In this document: piece after piece, positions 14,458-44,894 of the stretch | Layout: each line of letters begins with the position of its first letter | Position numbering within the stretch: position 1 is the stretch's first letter | Assembly: GCA_017561025.1 (NCBI GenBank) | Contig: JAFZDU010000122.1 | Span: 1-44,894 of the forward strand | DNA from: Bacteroidales bacterium | GTDB taxonomy: Bacteria > Bacteroidota > Bacteroidia > Bacteroidales > F082 | Length of the DNA stretch: 44,894 nucleotides | Direction of reading: 5' to 3' | The notes under the pieces: generated by a model | Databases searched by the model: none | The model's input: the letters and a program-made list of their open reading frames with translations, nothing else | Told to the model about the DNA's origin: nothing | Made by a program: the position numbers and the translations under genes

Positions 14458-14543
14458 TTCCACATGTTTGCCTGTGTGTAAATATTCTACATTTTAAAGT
14501 GTGGAAAGTTGTGGAAAAATTCTACGTTTCTACACTTGTGTAA
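14458..14543. promoter_or_regulatory. Cluster of TTCYACA boxes upstream of lipoprotein A
   Basis: Seven-base boxes occur at 14458-14464 (TTCCACA), 14485-14491 (TTCTACA), 14500-14506 and 14510-14516 (TGTGGAA), 14528-14534 (TTCTACA), and a weaker TGTGTAA at 14537-14543. Two of them form an imperfect palindrome, TTCTACA-N8-TGTGGAA (14485-14506). They lie 144-229 bases upstream of the ATG. A similar cluster precedes the paralogous gene at about the same distance. They look like binding sites of a regulator, possibly the adjacent NtrC-type protein (inference). Confidence 0.6.
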
Positions 14544-14566
14544 TTGAAAAAATATTCTTATATTTG
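14536..14566 (+). promoter_or_regulatory. Vegetative promoter of lipoprotein A
   Basis: A TTG at 14536-14538, a 20-base spacer and TATATTTG at 14559-14566 match the Bacteroidetes -33/-7 pattern. The leader would be about 115 bases. The -33 region overlaps the last TTCYACA-like boxes. Confidence 0.55.
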
Positions 14567-14686
14567 CCAACTCTAATATGATTATCAATCGTTTGAAATA
14601 TTTTTATAAATAATCGCGTGATGGTATGAATTTAGATAGTAGAATGATATTGAAAATGAAACACTAATAATTAAAACTTAAAAATA

Positions 14687-15532
14687 ATGAAAAAAACTTT
14701 AACAATTTTATCAGTTGCATTAGTAGCTTTCATGTTAAGCTCATGCGTAGAAAAATCAAAGAAGTATCAACAATTAATGGCTGAAAAAGATGCTGTTGTT
14801 CTCGAAAACAAAAACATTGAAAGAGAATACAACGCAGCTCTCGGCATCATCAGCGACGTTGAAAACAACCTCAGCGCTATCCGTGACGCAGAAGGTATGA
14901 TGTTGATCAAAAACGAAAGCAACACACAAAGAGATCAACTCAATTCAGAGTTAATTCAAATTAAAGAAGCTATGGCAATCAATCGCGCTAAGTTAGATTC
15001 ATTGTCAACAGTTTTAGAAAACTCAAATAAAGACAGATCTTATCTCCGTAACACAATTAAAAAATTACAAGCTCAATTAGCTGAAAAAGAAGCTACAATC
15101 GCTCAAATGCAAGAACAACTTGCACAAAAAGATCAAGAAATTGAAGGCTTGAATACAAAAGTTAACAACTTGAACCAAGATCTTAACGTAGCTAATGCTA
15201 AAAACGATGAACAAAGCCGCATGATCGCTGACCAAATCGTTGAAATGAACAAAGTTTACTACGTTGGCGCTTCTAAAAAAGCTTTGAAAGAAAGCGGTAT
15301 CTTGACATCAAAATATATCTTGAGACAAGAAGTTCCAGCTGAAGCTTTCACATTAGCTGACAAACGCGAAGTTAAACAAATCGCTTTCGAAGGCAAAAAA
15401 GTTAAAGTTCTCTCAGCTCATCCAGTTGAATCATACACAATCGTAAATAATGACAACCAAGTTGTTATAGAAATTACAAATCCAGAATTATTCTGGAGTG
15501 TAACAAAATATTTGGTAGCTATAACCAAATAA
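14687..15532 (+). CDS. Coiled-coil lipoprotein A (tandem paralogue)
   Basis: A 281-residue lipoprotein. The signal ends at the lipidation Cys in LSSC (C20), followed by VEKSKKYQ. Residues about 25-190 are heptad-rich coiled coil (LAEKEATIAQMQEQLAQKDQ and NTKVNNLNQDLNVANAKNDE). A C-terminal globular domain of about 90 residues begins VYYVGASKKALKESGILTSK and ends FWSVTKYLVAITK. It is highly similar to the protein at 15809 along its whole length, so a tandem duplication is clear. A periplasmic coiled coil anchored in the envelope is likely. I know of no assigned function; similar lipoproteins are seen in Bacteroidales. It is followed by its own terminator, so each copy is a separate transcription unit. 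Confidence 0.8.
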   Translation: MKKTLTILSVALVAFMLSSCVEKSKKYQQLMAEKDAVVLENKNIEREYNAALGIISDVENNLSAIRDAEGMMLIKNESNTQRDQLNSELIQIKEAMAINRAKLDSLSTVLENSNKDRSYLRNTIKKLQAQLAEKEATIAQMQEQLAQKDQEIEGLNTKVNNLNQDLNVANAKNDEQSRMIADQIVEMNKVYYVGASKKALKESGILTSKYILRQEVPAEAFTLADKREVKQIAFEGKKVKVLSAHPVESYTIVNNDNQVVIEITNPELFWSVTKYLVAITK

Positions 15533-15563
15533 TTTTTCTGCTCGTTTTCAATATTATGAAATT

Positions 15564-15593
15564 CCCGATGTCGCCAGACATCGGGTTTTCTCT
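15564..15593 (+). terminator. Terminator after lipoprotein A
   Basis: Perfect 9-bp stem CCCGATGTC / GACATCGGG with GCCA loop, followed by TTTTCTCTTT. Confidence 0.92.
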
Positions 15594-15608
15594 TTATAAT
15601 ATCTTAAC

Positions 15609-15671
15609 TTCCACAATATGAACATGTGTCTCCACATCCATATTGTGGATTTTTTCTACATAATTTCCACA
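15609..15671. promoter_or_regulatory. Cluster of TTCYACA boxes upstream of lipoprotein B
   Basis: Boxes lie at 15609-15615 (TTCCACA), 15630-15636 (CTCCACA), 15644-15650 (TGTGGAT), 15654-15660 (TTCTACA) and 15665-15671 (TTCCACA). An 11-bp perfect inverted repeat, TCCACAATATG (15610-15620) / CATATTGTGGA (15639-15649), joins two of them. The cluster is 138-200 bases upstream of the ATG, nearly matching the cluster before lipoprotein A. Confidence 0.62.
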
Positions 15672-15744
15672 TTTTATATGGCATTGTTTTGTTTATATTA
15701 TCTAAATCCTTGATACTTAATTTGTTTAATGCGATGCTGTGTTT

Positions 15745-15760
15745 TGGTATAATATTGGCT
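15745..15760 (+). promoter_or_regulatory. Candidate sigma-54 promoter of lipoprotein B
   Basis: TGGTATAATATTGGCT has the GG-N10-GC core of -24/-12 promoters and matches most of TGGCAC-N5-TTGCW. It is 48 bases upstream of the ATG and about 75-135 bases downstream of the TTCYACA boxes, the layout expected for a sigma-54 enhancer-binding activator. I see no TAnnTTTG element near this gene. Unproven. Confidence 0.5.
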
Positions 15761-15808: not shown

Positions 15809-16657
15809 ATGAAAAGCACAATTAAAGTTTTAGCAGTATTCTTCGCAGTAGGTTTGTTGACAACATCATGCGTTGAGAAATCAAAGAAATACCAGTTGCT
15901 CTTGGCTGAAAAAGAAGCAGCTATAGTAGAAAACCAAAATATTGAAAGAGAGTATAACGGCGCTCTCGGTATTATTTCTGACGTAGAAAACAATCTGCAG
16001 GCTCTCCGTGAAGCAGAAGGCCTGATCCTTATGAACAATGAAAACCTCTCACAAAGAGACAGACTCAACTCTGAACTGATTCAAATTAAAGAAGCAATGG
16101 CTTTGAACAACGCTAAGTTGGACTCATTGTACAATGCATTGGAAAACTCTAACAGAAGCAATAAAGAACTTCGTGCTACAGTAAAGAAACTCAAAACACA
16201 AATAGAAGAAAAAACTAAAGAAATAGAAGCTCTTCAAGTTCAGTTGGTAGAAAGAGACAATCAAATTGCAGGTCTTAACACTAAAGTTGAAAACCTCAAC
16301 GCTGATATTGAAAAGATCAATGCTGACAATGCAACAAAGAGTCAGACCATTGCAAATCACATCAATGAAATGAACACTGTTTATTATCTTGCAGCTCCTA
16401 AGAAAGAATTAAAGACTAACAACATCTTGACTTCAAAATATATCTTGAGAGAAAGCGTTCCAGCAGAATTGTTCACAAAAGCTGACAAACGTGAATTGAA
16501 TGAGATTACAATCGAAGCTAAGAAAGTTGTCATCCTCTCAAGCCACCCAATGGATTCATATACAATCGTAAAACAAGATTCAACAAATACACTTCAAATT
16601 ACTAACCCAGAGCAATTCTGGAGTGTCACTAAGTATTTGGTAATCTCTACCAAATAA
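15809..16657 (+). CDS. Coiled-coil lipoprotein B (tandem paralogue)
   Basis: A 282-residue lipoprotein, colinear with the one at 14687. The lipidation Cys is in LTTSC, again followed by VEKSKKYQ. Shared blocks include IEREYN, ALGIISDVENNL, NSELIQIKEAMA, AKLDSL, ILTSKYILR, ADKRE and FWSVTKYLV. The coiled-coil middle (about 25-190) has diverged most. The conserved ends suggest that the anchoring region and the C-terminal domain carry the function. It lies directly upstream of the sigma-54-type response regulator, with a terminator between. The two copies may be differently regulated: B has a candidate sigma-54 promoter and A a vegetative one. Confidence 0.8.
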   Translation: MKSTIKVLAVFFAVGLLTTSCVEKSKKYQLLLAEKEAAIVENQNIEREYNGALGIISDVENNLQALREAEGLILMNNENLSQRDRLNSELIQIKEAMALNNAKLDSLYNALENSNRSNKELRATVKKLKTQIEEKTKEIEALQVQLVERDNQIAGLNTKVENLNADIEKINADNATKSQTIANHINEMNTVYYLAAPKKELKTNNILTSKYILRESVPAELFTKADKRELNEITIEAKKVVILSSHPMDSYTIVKQDSTNTLQITNPEQFWSVTKYLVISTK

Positions 16658-16678: not shown

Positions 16679-16710
16679 AAATCCGGTATCGCTCGATGCC
16701 GGATTTTTTT
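16679..16710 (+). terminator. Terminator after lipoprotein B
   Basis: Stem AAATCCGGTATCG / CGATGCCGGATTT with one T-G pair and a two-base centre, followed by a T tract. Confidence 0.88.
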
Positions 16711-16755: not shown

Positions 16756-16763
16756 TACTTTTG
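16756..16763 (+). promoter_or_regulatory. TAnnTTTG element for the response regulator
   Basis: TACTTTTG is 28 bases upstream of the ATG at 16792. Confidence 0.55.
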
Positions 16764-16791: not shown

Positions 16792-18171
16792 ATGAACAAA
16801 CGTATTTTAATAGTCGAAGATGATGTGGCATTTGGAACAATGCTGAATACATGGTTTTCCAAAAACTCATGGGATGCAACCTGGGTTTCAAAAGTAGAAT
16901 TGGCGAAGCAGGAGTTTCAGAATGCCTCCTTTGATTTGGTTCTTAGTGATTTGCGTCTTCCTGACGGTGATGGAATTATTCTTCTCACCTGGATGAGAGA
17001 AAACAAGATAATGTCGCCATTTATCATCATGACTAGTTATTCTGACGTTCAGACTGCTGTGCTAGCAATGAAACTTGGTGCTTTCGATTATTTGCAGAAA
17101 CCGATAAATCCTACCATACTTCAGCAGAAGATTGAACTTGCGATGAGTGCTTCAACTGCTGTAGAAGTGAAAAATGAAACTGTAAAACCAAAAAACAAAC
17201 AGAAGCTGGAACAGAATAAGGTTGTAAAAGGCAGCAGTGCGGTGATGCAGCGTCTTTATTCACATATTGACTTGGTTGCTCCTACAAAGATGTCAGTCCT
17301 GATTCTCGGAGAGAGCGGTACTGGTAAAGAGTATATCGCTCGTATGATTCATGAGAACAGTAATAGAAAGTCAGAACCATTCGTTGCTGTTGACTGTGGC
17401 AGCCTCTCTATGGAACTTGCTCCATCAGAGCTGTTCGGTCACAAGAAAGGGTCTTTTACATCAGCAATTTCAGATAAGACAGGTGTTTTCATTGAAGCTA
17501 ATGGTGGCACTGTATTTTTGGATGAGGTTGGAAATCTTTCCTATGAGGTGCAGAAACAGCTTCTTAGAGCTTTGCAGGAACAGAAAGTACGTCCGGTAGG
17601 CTCTGCTTCTGACATTAAAGTGGATGTGAGAATCATTGCAGCAACCAATGAAGACCTTGAAAAAGCGATAGAGGAGGGCAGATTCCGTCAGGATCTTTAT
17701 CATCGTATCAATGAGTTTTCTGTTAATGTACCACCACTTAGAGAAAGAATGGAAGACATTGAAGAATTCTGTTATCATTTTATAGAGCAGGCTAATGATG
17801 AACTCGGAAAGGATGTCGATACAATTGACACAGAAGCACTAGCTGTCATAAGACAACATAATTGGCTCGGTAACCTGAGAGAACTGCGTAATGTTATCCG
17901 TCGTTCTGTACTGTTTGCAAAAGACAATGTCTTGAGAAAGGATAATCTTCCGGAATTTCCAAAGACAGTGAAAACGCAAAATGTGGCTGTGAATATAGTT
18001 CGGGAAACTCAAGAAGTAAAAGACTTTTCCTTGAATAAATACAACGAGAAAGATCAGATTGTTGCTGCCTTGAATCAGGCTAGAGGCAACAAGACAGTAG
18101 CGGCCAAACTCTTGCAGATTGACAGAAAGACCTTATACAATAAGATGCATTTATATGGAATAGAACTGTGA
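16792..18171 (+). CDS. NtrC-family sigma-54-dependent response regulator
   Basis: Two-component transcription activator of 459 residues. The receiver domain (about 1-120) has the acidic pair ED, phospho-acceptor D53 in LVLSDLRLPDGDG, and K in LQKPI. The AAA+ domain (about 145-380) has Walker A GESGTGKEY, Walker B GGTVFLDEVGNL and arginine-finger regions. The sigma-54-contacting loop reads GSFTSA (residues 220-225) instead of the usual GAFTGA. A Fis-type helix-turn-helix closes the protein (QARGNKTVAAKLLQIDRKTL). The ATG at 16792 is chosen; an upstream TTG adds only two residues. It converges with the hybrid kinase gene, whose stop is two bases away, so the pair is probably cognate. Likely targets are the upstream TTCYACA clusters (inference). 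Confidence 0.93.
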   Translation: MNKRILIVEDDVAFGTMLNTWFSKNSWDATWVSKVELAKQEFQNASFDLVLSDLRLPDGDGIILLTWMRENKIMSPFIIMTSYSDVQTAVLAMKLGAFDYLQKPINPTILQQKIELAMSASTAVEVKNETVKPKNKQKLEQNKVVKGSSAVMQRLYSHIDLVAPTKMSVLILGESGTGKEYIARMIHENSNRKSEPFVAVDCGSLSMELAPSELFGHKKGSFTSAISDKTGVFIEANGGTVFLDEVGNLSYEVQKQLLRALQEQKVRPVGSASDIKVDVRIIAATNEDLEKAIEEGRFRQDLYHRINEFSVNVPPLRERMEDIEEFCYHFIEQANDELGKDVDTIDTEALAVIRQHNWLGNLRELRNVIRRSVLFAKDNVLRKDNLPEFPKTVKTQNVAVNIVRETQEVKDFSLNKYNEKDQIVAALNQARGNKTVAAKLLQIDRKTLYNKMHLYGIEL

Positions 18172-18173
18172 TT

Positions 18174-20624
18174 TTATTCTATATCATATTTCTCGCTTAA
18201 ATATGATATGAAGTCGTCAACTTTGTTCATGAATTCTATGGATTCTTCTTTCCATTCAGGGAATGAGGTGTGGTCTTTTCCTCTTAACTTGTCCATCTTA
18301 TATAGAAACTCAGCTGATTCTTTCTTATTAAGCTGAACAAACATAGGACACATCTTGTGACATAGTTTAACGGCATCATTGAAATTATCGCAGTTGATGA
18401 GTTCGTTGAAAGTCACTAAATTATCTGATGTGGTTTCAACGAAAGTCTTTAAAATGTTTGTGATGGATTCTTCGTCATTTTCAAACATGCTGCATAATTC
18501 AGGGAAATCATTGCTGAACCTAGATGGCTTGTTCTTTTTATCATCAGTCTTGATTTCAGAATTCATCAGATTAGCCAAGTCTTTGATGGAAAAAGGTTTT
18601 CTTATATAACTGTCAAACCCTTTTGCTCTAGCGACATCTTTGTTGTATTCCGAACGTGCTGTCATCAACACGACATATTTGTTTTTATTTATCTCCTTGA
18701 TTTTTTTCAATACGTCTAGGCCGCTGAATGCACCCATCTCTCTGTCGGTTAAAACAATATCGTATCTGTCGATATTATTGCAATATTCTTCAAACTCGAT
18801 AGAGGATTGGCATACATCACATCTTATTCCCAATTTGTTAAGCATTGATTTTATCACTGCCAATAAAGTGTTGTCGTCATCAATGACTAGAATGTTTTCA
18901 ATAGTATTTGATTTTAGTTTTTCAATATCAATAGCTTCTTCTTTTTCTTCATTCAATATAACATATTCAATAGGGATTGTGACCTTAAAATGTGTTCCTT
19001 TATCAAGCTCTGATTTTACTTCTATATTGCCTTTAAGTATTTCTACCAGTCCTTTGACAACGAAAAGTCCGAAACCATTTCCTTCTATAAGACTTTCATT
19101 ATTGTCGATGCGGCTGAACGGCTTGAAAATTTCTTCCAGTTTGTCTTGAGGAATGCCTATGCCTTCATCAGTAATATTGAATATGATTTCATTATGAGTA
19201 TTGCTTACATTAAAGGTGATATTGCCTTTGATGGTATATTTGATAGCATTAGATAGTAGGTTGCTTATTATCTGCTTGATTTTTAGTGCGTCAGTCCTGA
19301 CTTGTGTTTTGTTGTTGAATTTTTTCTCATAAACAAATGACAACTGTTTGCTTACGGCTAGAGGTGTAAACATTGTCACCAAGTCGTCGCATAAAGTCTC
19401 AATGTTGAATTTTGATAAGATTGCTGCTTCTTTGCCTTGGTCCAGGCGTGAGAAATTCAATAAGTTGGTGAGCAGCGACAATATATGTTCTGCAGAATTC
19501 TTCATTGAAGATATTTTACGTCTGTCTTCTGTGTTATCTGAATCTATATGCATAAGCTCAAGGTAACCGAGAATGGAAGATAGGGGAGCCTTCACGTCAT
19601 GAGAGACGGATAGGAGCAGTTTATGTCGGCTCTCCATTATCTCTTCAGTTCTTTTTTTAGCTTCTTCGGTGGCCGTTCTTGCTGCAGCTACTTTTCTGAT
19701 ATCGTAAAATATCAAGAATATGAAAGTCAATATTATTAATAGAGCAGCAGTAGCTATAGATATAGAGATATTTATGTTTTTGTCGATGAGAATTTCACTT
19801 TTCTCAATTTCTTTTATGACAGATGTCAATGTTTGTTTATGCAATATTATCAGCAAATCAGAAATCTCTTTCGTTATTTGCTGATCGGAAAGGATGAGGT
19901 TGTTGTATCTGTTTTCTATAATCTCTATTTGTCTGAGGTATTCCTTTTTACCTCTTTCTGTATATGTCTGCAGTTCGTGCAGTAATTCAGCGGCCTCATT
20001 ATCAGTTTCGTTTATTGTGTCGATAGTTGTTTTTGAAACAACGACAAGACTGTCGAGAGCTTTATCTGGTGAGAAAACGGCACCGAGTCGTTTGATGAAA
20101 CTCTTTTTTTCTGATTTGTATACGATTGTATCTTGTGTGGTTTTGCTTACGGCGGCACTTGTGTTCTTAGGCTGATAACTTTCTATTATGGAATATAATT
20201 CAGTATATGGATTAAATGCTATAAATTGATTGTTTATCTCAGTTATGATATCTTCTTTCTTTTTAAGAAGTGTGGTGATATCGTCTAAAGTCTTACGGTT
20301 GAAGTTGTCGTTGCACAGATTATGTATGGAGTCGTTGATTTTTGATATTTTAGATATGCTTATATTGAAATTATTGAGATGTATGTCTTTGGCTGAAAAT
20401 ATATATAGGTTTGAATATGACTGTGCTTTGTTGATATTCTCGATGAGATTGTTTGTCAAGTCTAAAAGCTGTTCGTTTTTTTCTATGTTTTCTTTTTGGA
20501 AACTGATAGAGTTTTTGAGATTTGCAATATAGTAAATCATTCCGGAACAAAGCATTGAAGCCATGATATATATAATCACAGCATTGAACTTTACTCTGCT
20601 TTCATATTGACGTTTTCTTCTCAT
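18174..20624 (-). CDS. Hybrid sensor histidine kinase with receiver and HPt domains
   Basis: Inner-membrane sensor of 816 residues. TM1 is at about 13-33 and TM2 at about 287-308, enclosing a periplasmic region of about 250 residues that is largely helical. The HisKA domain has H342 in SVSHDVKAPLSS. The ATPase domain shows an N box (QIISNLLSNAIKYT) and G boxes (DEGIGIP, GNGFGLFV). A receiver domain follows with D627 in VLTDREMGAFSG, and then an HPt domain with H756 in KLCHKMCPMF. This is a full phosphorelay (His-Asp-His) that should end on the receiver of the convergent NtrC-type regulator. The stimulus is unknown. Confidence 0.93.
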   Translation of the reverse strand: MRRKRQYESRVKFNAVIIYIMASMLCSGMIYYIANLKNSISFQKENIEKNEQLLDLTNNLIENINKAQSYSNLYIFSAKDIHLNNFNISISKISKINDSIHNLCNDNFNRKTLDDITTLLKKKEDIITEINNQFIAFNPYTELYSIIESYQPKNTSAAVSKTTQDTIVYKSEKKSFIKRLGAVFSPDKALDSLVVVSKTTIDTINETDNEAAELLHELQTYTERGKKEYLRQIEIIENRYNNLILSDQQITKEISDLLIILHKQTLTSVIKEIEKSEILIDKNINISISIATAALLIILTFIFLIFYDIRKVAAARTATEEAKKRTEEIMESRHKLLLSVSHDVKAPLSSILGYLELMHIDSDNTEDRRKISSMKNSAEHILSLLTNLLNFSRLDQGKEAAILSKFNIETLCDDLVTMFTPLAVSKQLSFVYEKKFNNKTQVRTDALKIKQIISNLLSNAIKYTIKGNITFNVSNTHNEIIFNITDEGIGIPQDKLEEIFKPFSRIDNNESLIEGNGFGLFVVKGLVEILKGNIEVKSELDKGTHFKVTIPIEYVILNEEKEEAIDIEKLKSNTIENILVIDDDNTLLAVIKSMLNKLGIRCDVCQSSIEFEEYCNNIDRYDIVLTDREMGAFSGLDVLKKIKEINKNKYVVLMTARSEYNKDVARAKGFDSYIRKPFSIKDLANLMNSEIKTDDKKNKPSRFSNDFPELCSMFENDEESITNILKTFVETTSDNLVTFNELINCDNFNDAVKLCHKMCPMFVQLNKKESAEFLYKMDKLRGKDHTSFPEWKEESIEFMNKVDDFISYLSEKYDIE

Positions 20625-29208: not shown

Positions 29209-30288
29209 ATGGATAAAGAGAAGATAATATCTATATTTAAAGGTAATGGTAGACAGATATTAGCATGGTCTGCTGTGTTCCTTTTTTTCTTCTTGTCATT
29301 CTGGGCCAATTGGGTCATATCATTTGCCCATGCTCTTCTTGTAACAGGCTGTCTTTTGTTTACAAGTGAAGTGGAATCTAAATATGTAGTCAAGCTACTT
29401 CAAAAAGGCAACGTATATATATTTTATCTTGTCAATGTACTTGTCGTTATTGTGTTTTCTGTATCAACGACTTATGTAGAGTCATTGATGCTGACCATCA
29501 TGAGCGAGCATATGTCATTGTCGGAGGTTCCTCAACTGGATGGCGTAAAGGCATTCTTCGTGCCATTATTGATAAGGGTTGTTATATACACTGCAACGAT
29601 AGCGATTTCTGTAATTTCAACTCTTCAACACACAGAGAAAGAGAGCCAAAGAATTAAAAATGAACTTAAAAGCGAGAAACTGGACATGGAGCTGCGTTTC
29701 CTTAAATCGCAGATGACGCCTCATTTCTTGTTTAACGCATTGAATAACATATATTCTCTTGTGTATATAAAAGATGAAAATGCACCTAAAAGCATACTTA
29801 AGCTTTCTGATATGCTTCGCTATGTTATGGTTGATTGCCAGGTCGATCTTATCTCTCTGGAAAAAGAAATTAAGTATATTGACGCCTACATAGATTTCCA
29901 TCAGATGAGCATGGAAACAAACTCAAATGTTATCTTCGATAAAAAGATTAAAAATCCTGATTTCAAGATACCTCCTATGATTCTGCAGCCTTTGGTGGAA
30001 AACAGTTTCAAACATAGCAGATTGGTTAATGATCCTAATGGATATGTACATTTTTATCTCATTCAGGAGAAAAACGATTTGATTTTCATAGCTCGTAATT
30101 CTATTAGCGGGATGTCAGCATTAGTGGATACTAGTAATAAGCATCAGGCTGGTATCGGATTAGCTAATGTTAAGAAAAGACTGGAATTGTATTATGAAAA
30201 TAGATATTCTTTCGATGTTAAACAGGAGAATAATTCATACGTGGTAACAATTAAAATAGGAGATGAGTTGGATGAAAAGAAAATATAA
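29209..30288 (+). CDS. LytS-family sensor histidine kinase
   Basis: Membrane sensor of the His_kinase (LytS/YehU) family, 359 residues. It has four predicted TM helices (about 18-34, 39-53, 70-90, 115-137), then a short coiled linker. The dimerisation/phospho-acceptor segment has H172 in SQMTPHFLFNALNNIYSL. The ATPase domain has PPMILQPLVENSFKH as N box and GIGLANVKKRLELYY as G box. There is no large periplasmic domain, so the signal is sensed in or near the membrane. It overlaps the LytTR regulator gene, so the two are a coupled pair. In Firmicutes LytS-type kinases respond to membrane potential or cell-wall state; the signal here is unknown. Confidence 0.93.
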   Translation: MDKEKIISIFKGNGRQILAWSAVFLFFFLSFWANWVISFAHALLVTGCLLFTSEVESKYVVKLLQKGNVYIFYLVNVLVVIVFSVSTTYVESLMLTIMSEHMSLSEVPQLDGVKAFFVPLLIRVVIYTATIAISVISTLQHTEKESQRIKNELKSEKLDMELRFLKSQMTPHFLFNALNNIYSLVYIKDENAPKSILKLSDMLRYVMVDCQVDLISLEKEIKYIDAYIDFHQMSMETNSNVIFDKKIKNPDFKIPPMILQPLVENSFKHSRLVNDPNGYVHFYLIQEKNDLIFIARNSISGMSALVDTSNKHQAGIGLANVKKRLELYYENRYSFDVKQENNSYVVTIKIGDELDEKKI

Positions 30289-44110: not shown

Positions 44111-44168
44111 AGAACTTTAGAATTTTTATAAATATGCATTATGAATTATGCATTATGCATTATGAATT
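44111..44168. repeat. Dispersed TATGCATTATGAA-type repeat run
   Basis: AGAACTTTAGAATTTT is followed by ATGCATTATGAATTATGCAT and another copy. It covers the stop codon of the next reverse-strand gene (44153-44155) and provides its last residues, IHNA. The same unit ends the RND gene at 21791-21817. Confidence 0.85.
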
Positions 44169-44749
44169 GTCTCAAGGTTCAAAGTTGTGATACCGTGTTC
44201 TTTACCTACGATATAAACCTTTCCTGGGTCGTTAGATGATTGGCGGAAGTCGCTCATGACTAATTCTTTACCTAAGATAAATTGATGGCATACAAATGTG
44301 TCACCTTCTTTCATTGTAGAATTCTCACAGTGTTCGGCAACGAAATTGTTCTCGCCGAGATAACGGACAACGCATATTCTATTAGGTAACCAGCCGATAC
44401 GGACTTTGTCGCCAATGTTAAGATCTTGAGTTGAAATGACTTCTAGGTTGAATACTTCAGATTCAATTTTGTTTTCTTTCATTAACAAATTGCAGAATGC
44501 ATTCCAATTTTCTCCTATGGCATAACTCGACAAGACATTTAGCGTACGTAAGGAGACTGTGTCGTAACCTCTTGTAGAATAATTCCACACACGTTCCAAT
44601 GTACTTTCAGAAATGTGTTGACGTAACTCCAATTCAATCAATGATGTGAGTTCGACGAAATCAGAGTGTGTATTTAATGTCTTTCCCAATTTATTTTCAA
44701 TGCGTTCGCGTAAGGCGCATATTTGTGGAATGTCGCTTTTTATTGTCAT
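44153..44749 (-). CDS. Bacteroidetes-type putative DNA-binding protein
   Basis: A 198-residue cytosolic protein of a family I have seen in Bacteroidetes as multiple paralogues without a firm function. The N-terminal part looks like a helical DNA-binding domain: ICALRERIENKLGKTLNTHS then HISESTLERVWNYSTRGYDT, with the STLERVW helix followed by SLRTLNVLSSYA. Residues about 108-170 form a beta-rich second domain (NIGDKVRIGWLPNRICVVRY and EGDTFVCHQFILGKELVM). The start is MTIKSDIPQ at 44749. A longer reading frame adds 29 residues encoded by the terminal repeat and is not believed. The repeat ends 4 bases upstream of the ATG. The last residues come from an intergenic repeat. Confidence 0.72.
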   Translation of the reverse strand: MTIKSDIPQICALRERIENKLGKTLNTHSDFVELTSLIELELRQHISESTLERVWNYSTRGYDTVSLRTLNVLSSYAIGENWNAFCNLLMKENKIESEVFNLEVISTQDLNIGDKVRIGWLPNRICVVRYLGENNFVAEHCENSTMKEGDTFVCHQFILGKELVMSDFRQSSNDPGKVYIVGKEHGITTLNLETIHNA

Positions 44750-44753
44750 GATA

Positions 44754-44894
44754 TTTAAGGGGATTTCTATAAATTGCTTTGCAAATGATTTATGAATTTT
44801 TCTTTGAGAAGATTTTTGTTTTTCTTGAAAGAACATAGCGAGCTATGTGATTGAAAGAAAGGCGAAAAGATTCCAAGAAAAAACATAAAGCATG
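44754..44894. repeat. Right copy of 141-bp terminal inverted repeat
   Basis: Reverse complement of 1-141 with one mismatch. It ends 4 bases upstream of the ATG at 44749 and so forms the leader of that gene. The two copies differ in what follows them inward, so this is a repeat inserted in, or shared by, two contexts. Confidence 0.9.

What the first reader, a model, noticed from the sequence alone, without database searches (positions are those of the whole stretch)
14458..15760. Matching TTCYACA box clusters before two paralogous lipoprotein genes
Both genes have five or six TTCYACA/TGTRGAA boxes, 144-229 and 138-200 bases upstream of their ATG. An 11-bp inverted repeat links two boxes in the second. 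A candidate -24/-12 promoter follows in B (15745-15760); a weak TGGTAT counterpart lies at the same distance in A (14622-14637). The next gene is an NtrC-type activator. This could be a small sigma-54 envelope-stress regulon not yet described.
Basis: partly seen in the sequence, partly recalled or inferred. Interest (0 to 1): 0.75.

Follow-up and report, generated by a model that had tools for sequence, protein, structure and literature searches.

The report
Sigma-54 switch for a lipoprotein gene pair

Summary
Both genes (Cbp1-family lipoproteins) have clusters of TCYACA boxes: five within 77 bp before A, five within 63 bp before B (three of B's are full TTCYACA heptamers). Relatives keep the array: 48 upstream regions hold 169 heptamers against 5.9 in shuffles, 46 of 48 hold two or more, and the commonest spacing is exactly 10 bp. 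Downstream lies a -24/-12 element; the strict GG-N10-GC core occurs in 28 of 48 regions (1.1 expected). Copy B has that core. Copy A and its closest orthologues do not, so A's sigma-54 promoter is doubtful. Boxes go with the adjacent NtrC-type regulator: 24 of 24 named loci with it adjacent have two or more boxes; 3 of 56 without it do, and those three genomes carry a regulator homologue on another contig. Cbp1 genes examined outside that lineage, including Bacteroides fragilis, lack the array. So this looks like a lineage-specific, enhancer-type sigma-54 regulon. "Envelope stress" is untested. The mechanism is classical; I found no description of this regulon in the paper listings I saw. All evidence is comparative; nothing shows binding or transcription.

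The parts
14458..14534 (.). Box array A: TTCYACA at 14458, 14485, 14528 (+) and 14500, 14510 (-); proposed enhancer (upstream activating sequence) of copy A
   Evidence: conserved in relatives
14559..14566 (+). TAnnTTTG (TATATTTG), -7 element of the Bacteroidota primary sigma factor; likely second promoter of copy A
   Evidence: position -128; the same element lies at -113 to -137 in 7 of 7 A-type regions; consensus quoted in PMC9723704
14583..14595 (+). IHF-like site WATCARNNNNTTR between boxes and promoter A (consensus recalled; inference)
   Evidence: a corresponding block is conserved in the main clade
14622..14637 (+). Degenerate -24/-12 element of copy A, TGGTATGAATTTAGAT (GG-N10-GA)
   Evidence: A-type orthologues also lack GC
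14687..15532 (+). Copy A, Cbp1-family coiled-coil lipoprotein (281 aa)
   Evidence: NF052320 E 2.5e-65
15564..15585 (+). Terminator-like hairpin followed by T-rich sequence after copy A
   Evidence: read
15609..15671 (.). Box array B: TCYACA cores at 15610, 15631, 15655, 15666 (+) and 15644 (-); includes the 11-bp inverted repeat 15610-15620 / 15639-15649
15703..15715 (-). IHF-like site on the opposite strand between boxes and promoter B (inference)
15745..15760 (+). -24/-12 sigma-54 promoter of copy B, TGGTATAATATTGGCT (GG-N10-GC)
15809..16657 (+). Copy B, Cbp1-family lipoprotein (282 aa; 61% identical to A)
   Evidence: NF052320 E 3e-63
16680..16705 (+). Terminator-like hairpin with T run after copy B
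   Evidence: read
16756..16763 (+). TAnnTTTG (TACTTTTG), likely primary-sigma promoter of the regulator gene
   Evidence: read
16792..18171 (+). NtrC-type response regulator (REC, AAA+ sigma-54 activator with GSFTSA loop, Fis-type HTH); proposed box-binding activator
18174..20624 (-). Hybrid histidine kinase (HisKA, HATPase, REC), convergent with the regulator; proposed partner

Best explanation
The box arrays are enhancers (upstream activating sequences) for the NtrC-type response regulator encoded just downstream. Its dimers, active when phosphorylated (probably through the convergent hybrid kinase), bind TGTRGA/TCYACA half-sites set 10 bp apart on one face of the helix and assemble into an AAA+ ring. 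With help from a bend in the DNA (IHF/HU-like site), the ring contacts sigma-54 RNA polymerase waiting at the -24/-12 element about 45-90 bp further on and drives transcription of the Cbp1-family lipoprotein. In this window copy B carries the good promoter. Copy A carries the boxes but a degenerate -12 and a primary-sigma promoter, so it is probably expressed mainly from the latter and modulated by the boxes. Shown by sequence: array, spacing, conserved promoter element, linkage to the regulator, rpoN present, catalytic motifs intact. Inferred: that this regulator binds these boxes, phosphorylation by this kinase, DNA looping, the signal.
For: Boxes: 169 in 48 upstream regions vs 5.9 in shuffles (largest 13); 46 of 48 regions with two or more (0.35 expected); 57 of 115 spacings of 45 bp or less are exactly 10 bp. 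TCCACA/TGTGGA is the most enriched hexamer in the box zone, 170 seen vs 2.5 expected. After clustering by the downstream protein at 75% identity, 16 of 18 clusters have two or more boxes in every member and 10 of 18 have a strict -24/-12 core in at least one member. Strict core in 28 of 48 regions vs 1.1 expected. In a 21-member alignment the boxes, an IHF-like block and -24/-12 stand out as conserved. Linkage: 24 of 24 named loci with the regulator adjacent have two or more boxes; 3 of 56 without (Fisher p 1.8e-17, not corrected for descent), and the three genomes carry a homologue on another contig at 66, 58 and 51% identity; for one (L179) gene and regulator each stop about 260-290 bp from a contig end, so they may simply be split by the assembly. 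Two Paludibacter-type MAG loci (L177, L178) show regulator 61%, two boxes 10 bp apart and TGGAACAGCACTTGCT; a second Cbp1 gene in the L177 assembly (L236) has neither boxes nor regulator. TTCCACANNNTTCCACA occurs in 23 of 26 genomes of the window's genus and 3 of 74 of other genera of the family, with no reversed-pattern control hits. In G009, copy A has lost both boxes and -24/-12 while copy B keeps both. rpoN present.
Against: No binding or transcript data. 20 of 48 regions lack the strict core, including all 7 A-type regions. A primary-sigma TAnnTTTG element lies near the boxes in 20 of 21 main-clade and 7 of 7 A-type regions, so a sigma-54-independent role is possible. The loop that contacts sigma-54 reads GSFTSA, not GAFTGA, and I found no report of that exact form. 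Related sequences are not independent. Linkage does not prove that this regulator binds the boxes. IHF-like sites were found between box and promoter in only 31 of 53 regions (48 plus five further loci, one of them a repeat) and the pattern is loose. The kinase was found beside the regulator in only 9 of 24 named loci.
Confidence: 0.77

Rival explanations
1. The boxes are sites of the same regulator (or of another factor) acting on the nearby primary-sigma promoters, as repressor or ordinary activator; the -24/-12 look-alikes matter little.
For: TAnnTTTG lies at -195 to -216 in 20 of 21 main-clade regions and at -113 to -137 in 7 of 7 A-type regions. Box pairs also sit beside TAnnTTTG promoters of other genes: the regulator gene itself in G007, G033 and G057 and a gene for a secreted protein in L073-L075, GWxTD-domain by Pfam in L073. 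The boxes are the more constant feature; the strict core is missing in 20 of 48 regions.
Against: -24/-12 is conserved at a fixed place, is strict in 28 of 48, and reappears beside box pairs in front of an unrelated gene in 4 of 4 loci. The linked regulator is a sigma-54-type activator.
Confidence: 0.13
2. The boxes are DnaA boxes (replication or DnaA-controlled promoter).
For: TCCACA is the end of the DnaA box TTATCCACA (recalled); TTTTCCACA, a possible DnaA box, occurs 40 times in the box zones against 0.05 expected, and TACACA 19 times against 4.65.
Against: Canonical TTATCCACA: 0 in 48 box zones. The tolerated change is at the position that DnaA needs as C (TCTACA 31 vs 4.95 expected; requirement recalled). 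Boxes follow the regulator, not Cbp1 or the chromosome generally. No clear GC-skew reversal at the site.
Confidence: 0.04
3. Chance or compositional AT-rich clusters inherited by recent common descent.
For: AT-rich intergenic DNA; related genomes.
Against: Shuffle tests; conserved although downstream proteins fall to about 30% identity; absent before the same gene family in the loci examined outside the regulator lineage.
Confidence: 0.02

Closest known systems
NtrC/AtoC/ZraR-type bacterial enhancer-binding response regulators with sigma-54 promoters
   Same: REC-AAA+-HTH protein, upstream paired half-sites, -24/-12 GG-N10-GC promoter, site for a DNA-bending protein between (architecture recalled; domains)
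   Different: Scores far below the cut-offs of the AtoC, NtrC and ZraR NCBIfam models; box TCYACA in 10-bp arrays; sigma-54 loop GSFTSA; target is a Cbp1-family lipoprotein
Sigma-54 (SM4) regulon of Flavobacterium psychrophilum (PMC9723704; passages and the first part of one section read)
   Same: Bacteroidota sigma-54 promoters in front of chaperone, envelope and lipoprotein genes
   Different: Enhancers and activators were not assigned in what I read; Cbp1-family genes are not named in the table seen
Cbp1 of Bacteroides fragilis (PMC3949742; abstract, one section and a term search seen)
   Same: The window proteins belong to the NCBI family named after it, NF052320; a B. fragilis locus was found with them (L238)
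   Different: 30% identical; the L238 gene has no boxes, no adjacent regulator and no good -24/-12; a term search of the paper found no regulator, promoter or operon
Cbp1 genes of another genus of the same family (g15: L157-L160)
   Same: Cbp1 gene with an NtrC-type regulator beside it and a TGGCAC...TTTGG element
   Different: Regulator only about 35% identical and upstream of the gene; different repeat (TCCTATCAA...TTGATAGGA); GG and GC are 11, not 10, apart or GC is missing; apparently wired independently

Membership tests
Sigma-54-dependent enhancer-binding response regulator (P0003) | REC, sigma-54 AAA+ and Fis-type HTH domains | tested here: met
   Pfam PF00072, PF00158 and PF02954 all over cut-off
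Sigma-54-dependent enhancer-binding response regulator (P0003) | Phosphoacceptor Asp, Walker A and B, arginine-finger region | tested here: met
   The Asp, GxSGTGKE, FLDE and FRxDL(Y/F)xR are present in 22 of 22 regulators aligned
Sigma-54-dependent enhancer-binding response regulator (P0003) | GAFTGA sigma-54 contact loop | tested here: inconclusive
   GSFTSA in 18 of 20 lineage members (GSFTTA in G001, GSFTGA in G261), GAFTGA in the two outgroups; GSFTGA is listed as keeping activity in PMC4641369 (passages); GSFTSA not found there
Sigma-54 promoter (copy B) | GG-N10-GC with TGGYAY at -24 | tested here: met
   15745-15760, 9 of 12 consensus positions
Sigma-54 promoter (copy A) | GG-N10-GC with TGGYAY at -24 | tested here: not met
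   GG-N10-GA, 8 of 12
Sigma-54 regulon | rpoN in the genome | tested here: met
   PF04552 E 6.2e-52 at G000:C113
Sigma-54 regulon | Expression depends on rpoN and the activator | not testable with these tools
   needs experiment
Cbp1 family lipoproteins (NF052320) | Over the curated score cut-off; lipobox Cys | tested here: met
   220.8 and 214.0 bits against 90; C20 invariant in both alignments
Cbp1 family lipoproteins (NF052320) | Collagen binding | not testable with these tools
   reported for B. fragilis Cbp1 (PMC3949742 abstract)
DnaA-box cluster | TTATNCACA 9-mers | tested here: not met
   TTATCCACA 0 and TTATACACA 1 in the box zones of 48 regions; the looser TTTTCCACA 40

The most novel reading that the evidence does not exclude
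The regulator is a dual-mode switch: through the same boxes it acts on primary-sigma (TAnnTTTG) promoters lying beside the arrays and at the same time drives the sigma-54 promoter downstream, and in some genomes it also acts on its own gene and on a Zeta-toxin-like P-loop gene. Cbp1-family lipoproteins have been put under sigma-54 control at least twice independently (the window's genus and genus g15).
Probability: 0.3. Interest if true: 0.6.

Novelty: new member of a known kind. Interest (0 to 1): 0.47.

Why it matters
It gives a regulator, its likely DNA code, its sigma factor and its main target as one testable unit in uncultured herbivore-gut Bacteroidales, a group for which I saw no sigma-54 enhancer work in the listings searched. 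Cbp1 is an outer-membrane glycoprotein that binds collagen in B. fragilis, so knowing what turns this family on in relatives bears on how gut bacteria manage their surface. Loss of boxes and promoter together in one duplicate (G009) and an apparently independent sigma-54-like arrangement in another genus make it a good case for studying how regulons are rewired.

Tried and rejected
DnaA boxes or replication origin: considered first because TCCACA ends the DnaA box; disfavoured (no TTATCCACA, though TTTTCCACA is frequent; boxes follow the regulator).

Sigma-54 scan of the own genome: I wrote the pattern with a 9-bp instead of a 10-bp spacer, so its 28 hits (12 in the reversed control) say nothing and were not used.

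Other loci with TTCCACANNNTTCCACA in the genus (62 hits in 48 of 60 genomes, 0 reversed-control hits): by comparing coordinates, 52 of 62 lie upstream of a Cbp1 gene. The ten others: three between Cbp1 and the regulator (G007, G033, G057); two before a Zeta-toxin-like gene (L071, L077); three before a secreted-protein gene (L073-L075); two inside open reading frames and taken as chance (L072, L076). From one search came two more Zeta-like loci (L253, L254; in L254 an ORF call also covers the pair) and one intergenic pair in G140 before an HlyD-type gene with no -24/-12 found near it (L252), left open.

Palindrome TGTRGAANNNTTCYACA: 19 places in 16 of 60 genomes; the reversed control had 2 places. 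By position seven are known Cbp1 arrays (G005, G009, G017, G026, G046, G048, G052) and one is in this window at 44573-44589 inside an ORF. I fetched the other eleven: ten lie inside an open reading frame; in L244, where no listed ORF covers it, the sequence closely resembles the coding L242/L243. Treated as coding or chance.

Boxes in the Cbp1-regulator gap as general autoregulation: 0 of 24 named loci have a box pair there, one has a single hexamer; only G007, G033 and G057 were seen with a pair.

Regulator homologues in genus g9 (49-50% identical, L066-L069): no Cbp1 and no box cluster in the 1.5 kb upstream.

Cbp1 solved structures: only a weak coiled-coil match, E 0.008.

Full report
What is there. 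The window is contig G000:C3 of a 2.79-Mb, 126-contig, 84%-complete assembly. The nearest named relatives of copy A are MAGs labelled Bacteroidales (L161, 89%, roe deer colon) or Lentimicrobiaceae (L162 88%, L163 83%), so the source is probably an uncultured gut Bacteroidales of that kind. Copy A (14687-15532) and copy B (15809-16657) are 61% identical and both belong to the Cbp1 lipoprotein family (NF052320, 220.8 and 214.0 bits against a cut-off of 90). Next come an NtrC-type response regulator (16792-18171) and, convergent with it, a hybrid histidine kinase (18174-20624). Terminator-like hairpins after A and B (read) suggest three separate transcription units.

The boxes. A has five TTCYACA heptamers in 77 bp. 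B has three, plus two further TCCACA cores, in 63 bp. Two clusters of five hexamers within 90 bp exist in the window; in 200 whole-window shuffles the largest cluster reached five once.

Conservation. Cbp1 orthologues were found in 54 of 60 genomes of the genus; 27 of the 27 genomes that were at least 90% complete and at most 5% contaminated had one. I analysed 48 distinct upstream regions (one truncated duplicate dropped); not all matches were fetched for this set. In them: 169 boxes against a shuffle mean of 5.9 (largest 13); two or more boxes in 46 of 48 (0.35 expected); the two exceptions are copy A of G009 (none) and copy B of G027 (one). Of 115 spacings up to 45 bp, 57 are exactly 10 bp and 92 fall within a base of whole helical turns; in the shuffles the latter fraction was 0.29, but of only 14 spacings. 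A common plan is TGTGGA...TGTGGAA N3 TTCCACA N3 TTCCACA. TCCACA/TGTGGA is also the most enriched hexamer without any prior motif. The regions are related; grouping them by downstream protein at 75% identity leaves 18 clusters, 16 with two or more boxes in every member.

The promoter. In 47 of 48 regions the best-scoring GG-containing 16-mer lies 38 to 72 bp before the ATG; copy A of G009 has none. The strict GG-N10-GC core with at least 9 of 12 consensus positions is present in 28 of 48 regions against 1.09 expected. Sixteen-mers such as TGGCACGATTTTGGCA recur. The gap between the last 10-bp-phased box pair and -24 is mostly 84-89 bp in the main clade, mostly 62-70 in the divergent clade and 45 in the two Paludibacter-type loci; some regions have an extra box nearer the promoter. 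These gaps differ by about two helical turns (my inference). In a 21-sequence alignment the blocks that stand out are the distal TAnnTTTG promoter (0.73), the boxes (0.65-0.84), an ATTGATTAT block that is IHF-like (0.81) and -24/-12 (0.78-0.80), besides the far 5' edge and the leader just before the ATG; the stretch between boxes and IHF-like block is at 0.40-0.53. Against a simple story: 20 of 48 regions lack the strict core. All seven A-type regions do; in the six of them that keep the element it reads GA at -12. So for the window, B's sigma-54 promoter is credible and A's is doubtful.

Who binds the boxes. In 80 named Cbp1 loci (the best 80 of 377 relatives), the 24 with a regulator orthologue (60% or more) close downstream all have two or more boxes; of the other 56, three do (L164, L179, L183). 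The genomes of L179 and L183, and G001, whose contig has the same length and match coordinates as L164's, carry a homologue on another contig (58, 51 and 66%). For L179 the Cbp1 gene ends about 255 bp, and the regulator begins about 290 bp, from a contig end, so they may be neighbours split by the assembly. Fisher's exact p is 1.8e-17, not corrected for shared descent. Some of the 80 are the same genomes as the unnamed ones, and several loci are cut short at contig ends. Outside the lineage: the 30 best-scoring order-wide loci, all from other families (of 70 genomes over the cut-off), have at most one box each, and no regulator within the 1.5 kb or less held on each side. Of 28 Cbp1 genes over the cut-off in other genera of the family I read 26; none has a box, one of them being cut to 8 upstream bases. 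The 10-bp box pair TTCCACANNNTTCCACA occurs in 23 of 26 genomes of the genus and 3 of 74 of other genera of the family; the two of these three that I read lie in coding sequence. All 26 genus members of the draw have the regulator at 63% or better; the best among the other 74 is 50%. Six genus genomes without a Cbp1 match (G002, G003, G008, G014, G028, G055; 58-85% complete) also lack a close regulator orthologue, best 35-42%; this fits a linked pair but these genomes are incomplete. Regulator, kinase, boxes and -24/-12 also occur in two Paludibacter-type MAG loci (L177, L178), while a second Cbp1 gene in the L177 assembly (L236) has no boxes.

The regulator. The phosphoacceptor Asp, GxSGTGKE, FLDE and the arginine-finger stretch are present in 22 of 22 aligned. 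The sigma-54 contact loop is GSFTSA in 18 of 20 lineage members, GSFTTA in G001 and GSFTGA in G261, against canonical GAFTGA in two outgroups without boxes. PMC4641369 (passages seen) lists GSFTGA among natural forms that would keep activity; GSFTSA is not mentioned there. The kinase lies beside the regulator in 9 of 24 named loci, including the window's close relatives, four divergent members and L177/L178, and was not found in the other 15.

Other targets. Box pairs with GG-N10-GC stand before a gene for a Zeta-toxin-like P-loop protein in four genomes (L071, L077, L253, L254; Pfam PF06414, E 5.3e-11, tested in L253). Boxes stand between Cbp1 and the regulator gene, beside a TACCTTTG element, in G007, G033 and G057 and, beside a primary-sigma-type promoter with no -24/-12 seen, before a secreted-protein gene in three genomes (L073-L075; GWxTD domain tested in L073). 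This suggests a small regulon that differs between clades.

Comparison with what is known. The mechanism is the textbook enhancer-binding-protein/sigma-54 one. Sigma-54 promoters in front of chaperone, envelope and lipoprotein genes are known in Flavobacterium psychrophilum (PMC9723704), which makes an envelope role plausible but does not show it here. A survey of sigma-54 regulons across bacteria (PMC12316311, passages seen) covers Bacteroidota and does not contain the word Cbp1. Cbp1 was described as a collagen-binding glycoprotein and putative lipoprotein of B. fragilis (PMC3949742); a term search of that paper found no regulator, promoter or operon, and the B. fragilis locus found here lacks this wiring (L238). 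Paper searches gave, in the listings I saw, no description of this regulon or box.

Noticed in passing
L157-L160 (genus g15: G117, G073, G087, G099): Cbp1-family gene with a different NtrC-type regulator (about 35% identical) directly upstream, repeats TCCTATCAA...TTGATAGGA and TGGCACATCGTTTGG(C/T/G): an apparently independent sigma-54-like wiring of the same gene family.
   Followed up: partly
L071, L077, L253, L254: Box pair plus GG-N10-GC in front of a Zeta-toxin-like P-loop gene that diverges from a small lipoprotein-like gene.
   Followed up: partly
L073, L074, L075 (G005, G039, G051): TTCCACATTTTTCCACA just upstream of a primary-sigma-type promoter of a secreted-protein gene (GWxTD domain in L073), on the same contig as Cbp1 and about 11-20 kb away in all three genomes.
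   Followed up: partly
L252 (G140:C5): Intergenic box pair TGTGGAAGAGTGTGGAA about 107 bp before an HlyD-type gene, no -24/-12 found near it.
   Followed up: no
L011 (G009), copy A: Copy A of the tandem pair has lost both boxes and -24/-12 but keeps TAnnTTTG, while copy B keeps boxes and promoter: split regulation after duplication.
   Followed up: yes
window 16792-18171 and orthologues: Unusual sigma-54 contact loop GSFTSA conserved across most of the lineage, while two homologues without boxes have GAFTGA.
   Followed up: partly
window 44573-44589: TGTAGAATAATTCCACA palindrome inside the 44153-44836 ORF; probably chance.
   Followed up: no
window 30150-30165: TGGTATCGGATTAGCT, a second -24/-12-like match in the window, within the 29209-30288 ORF.
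   Followed up: no
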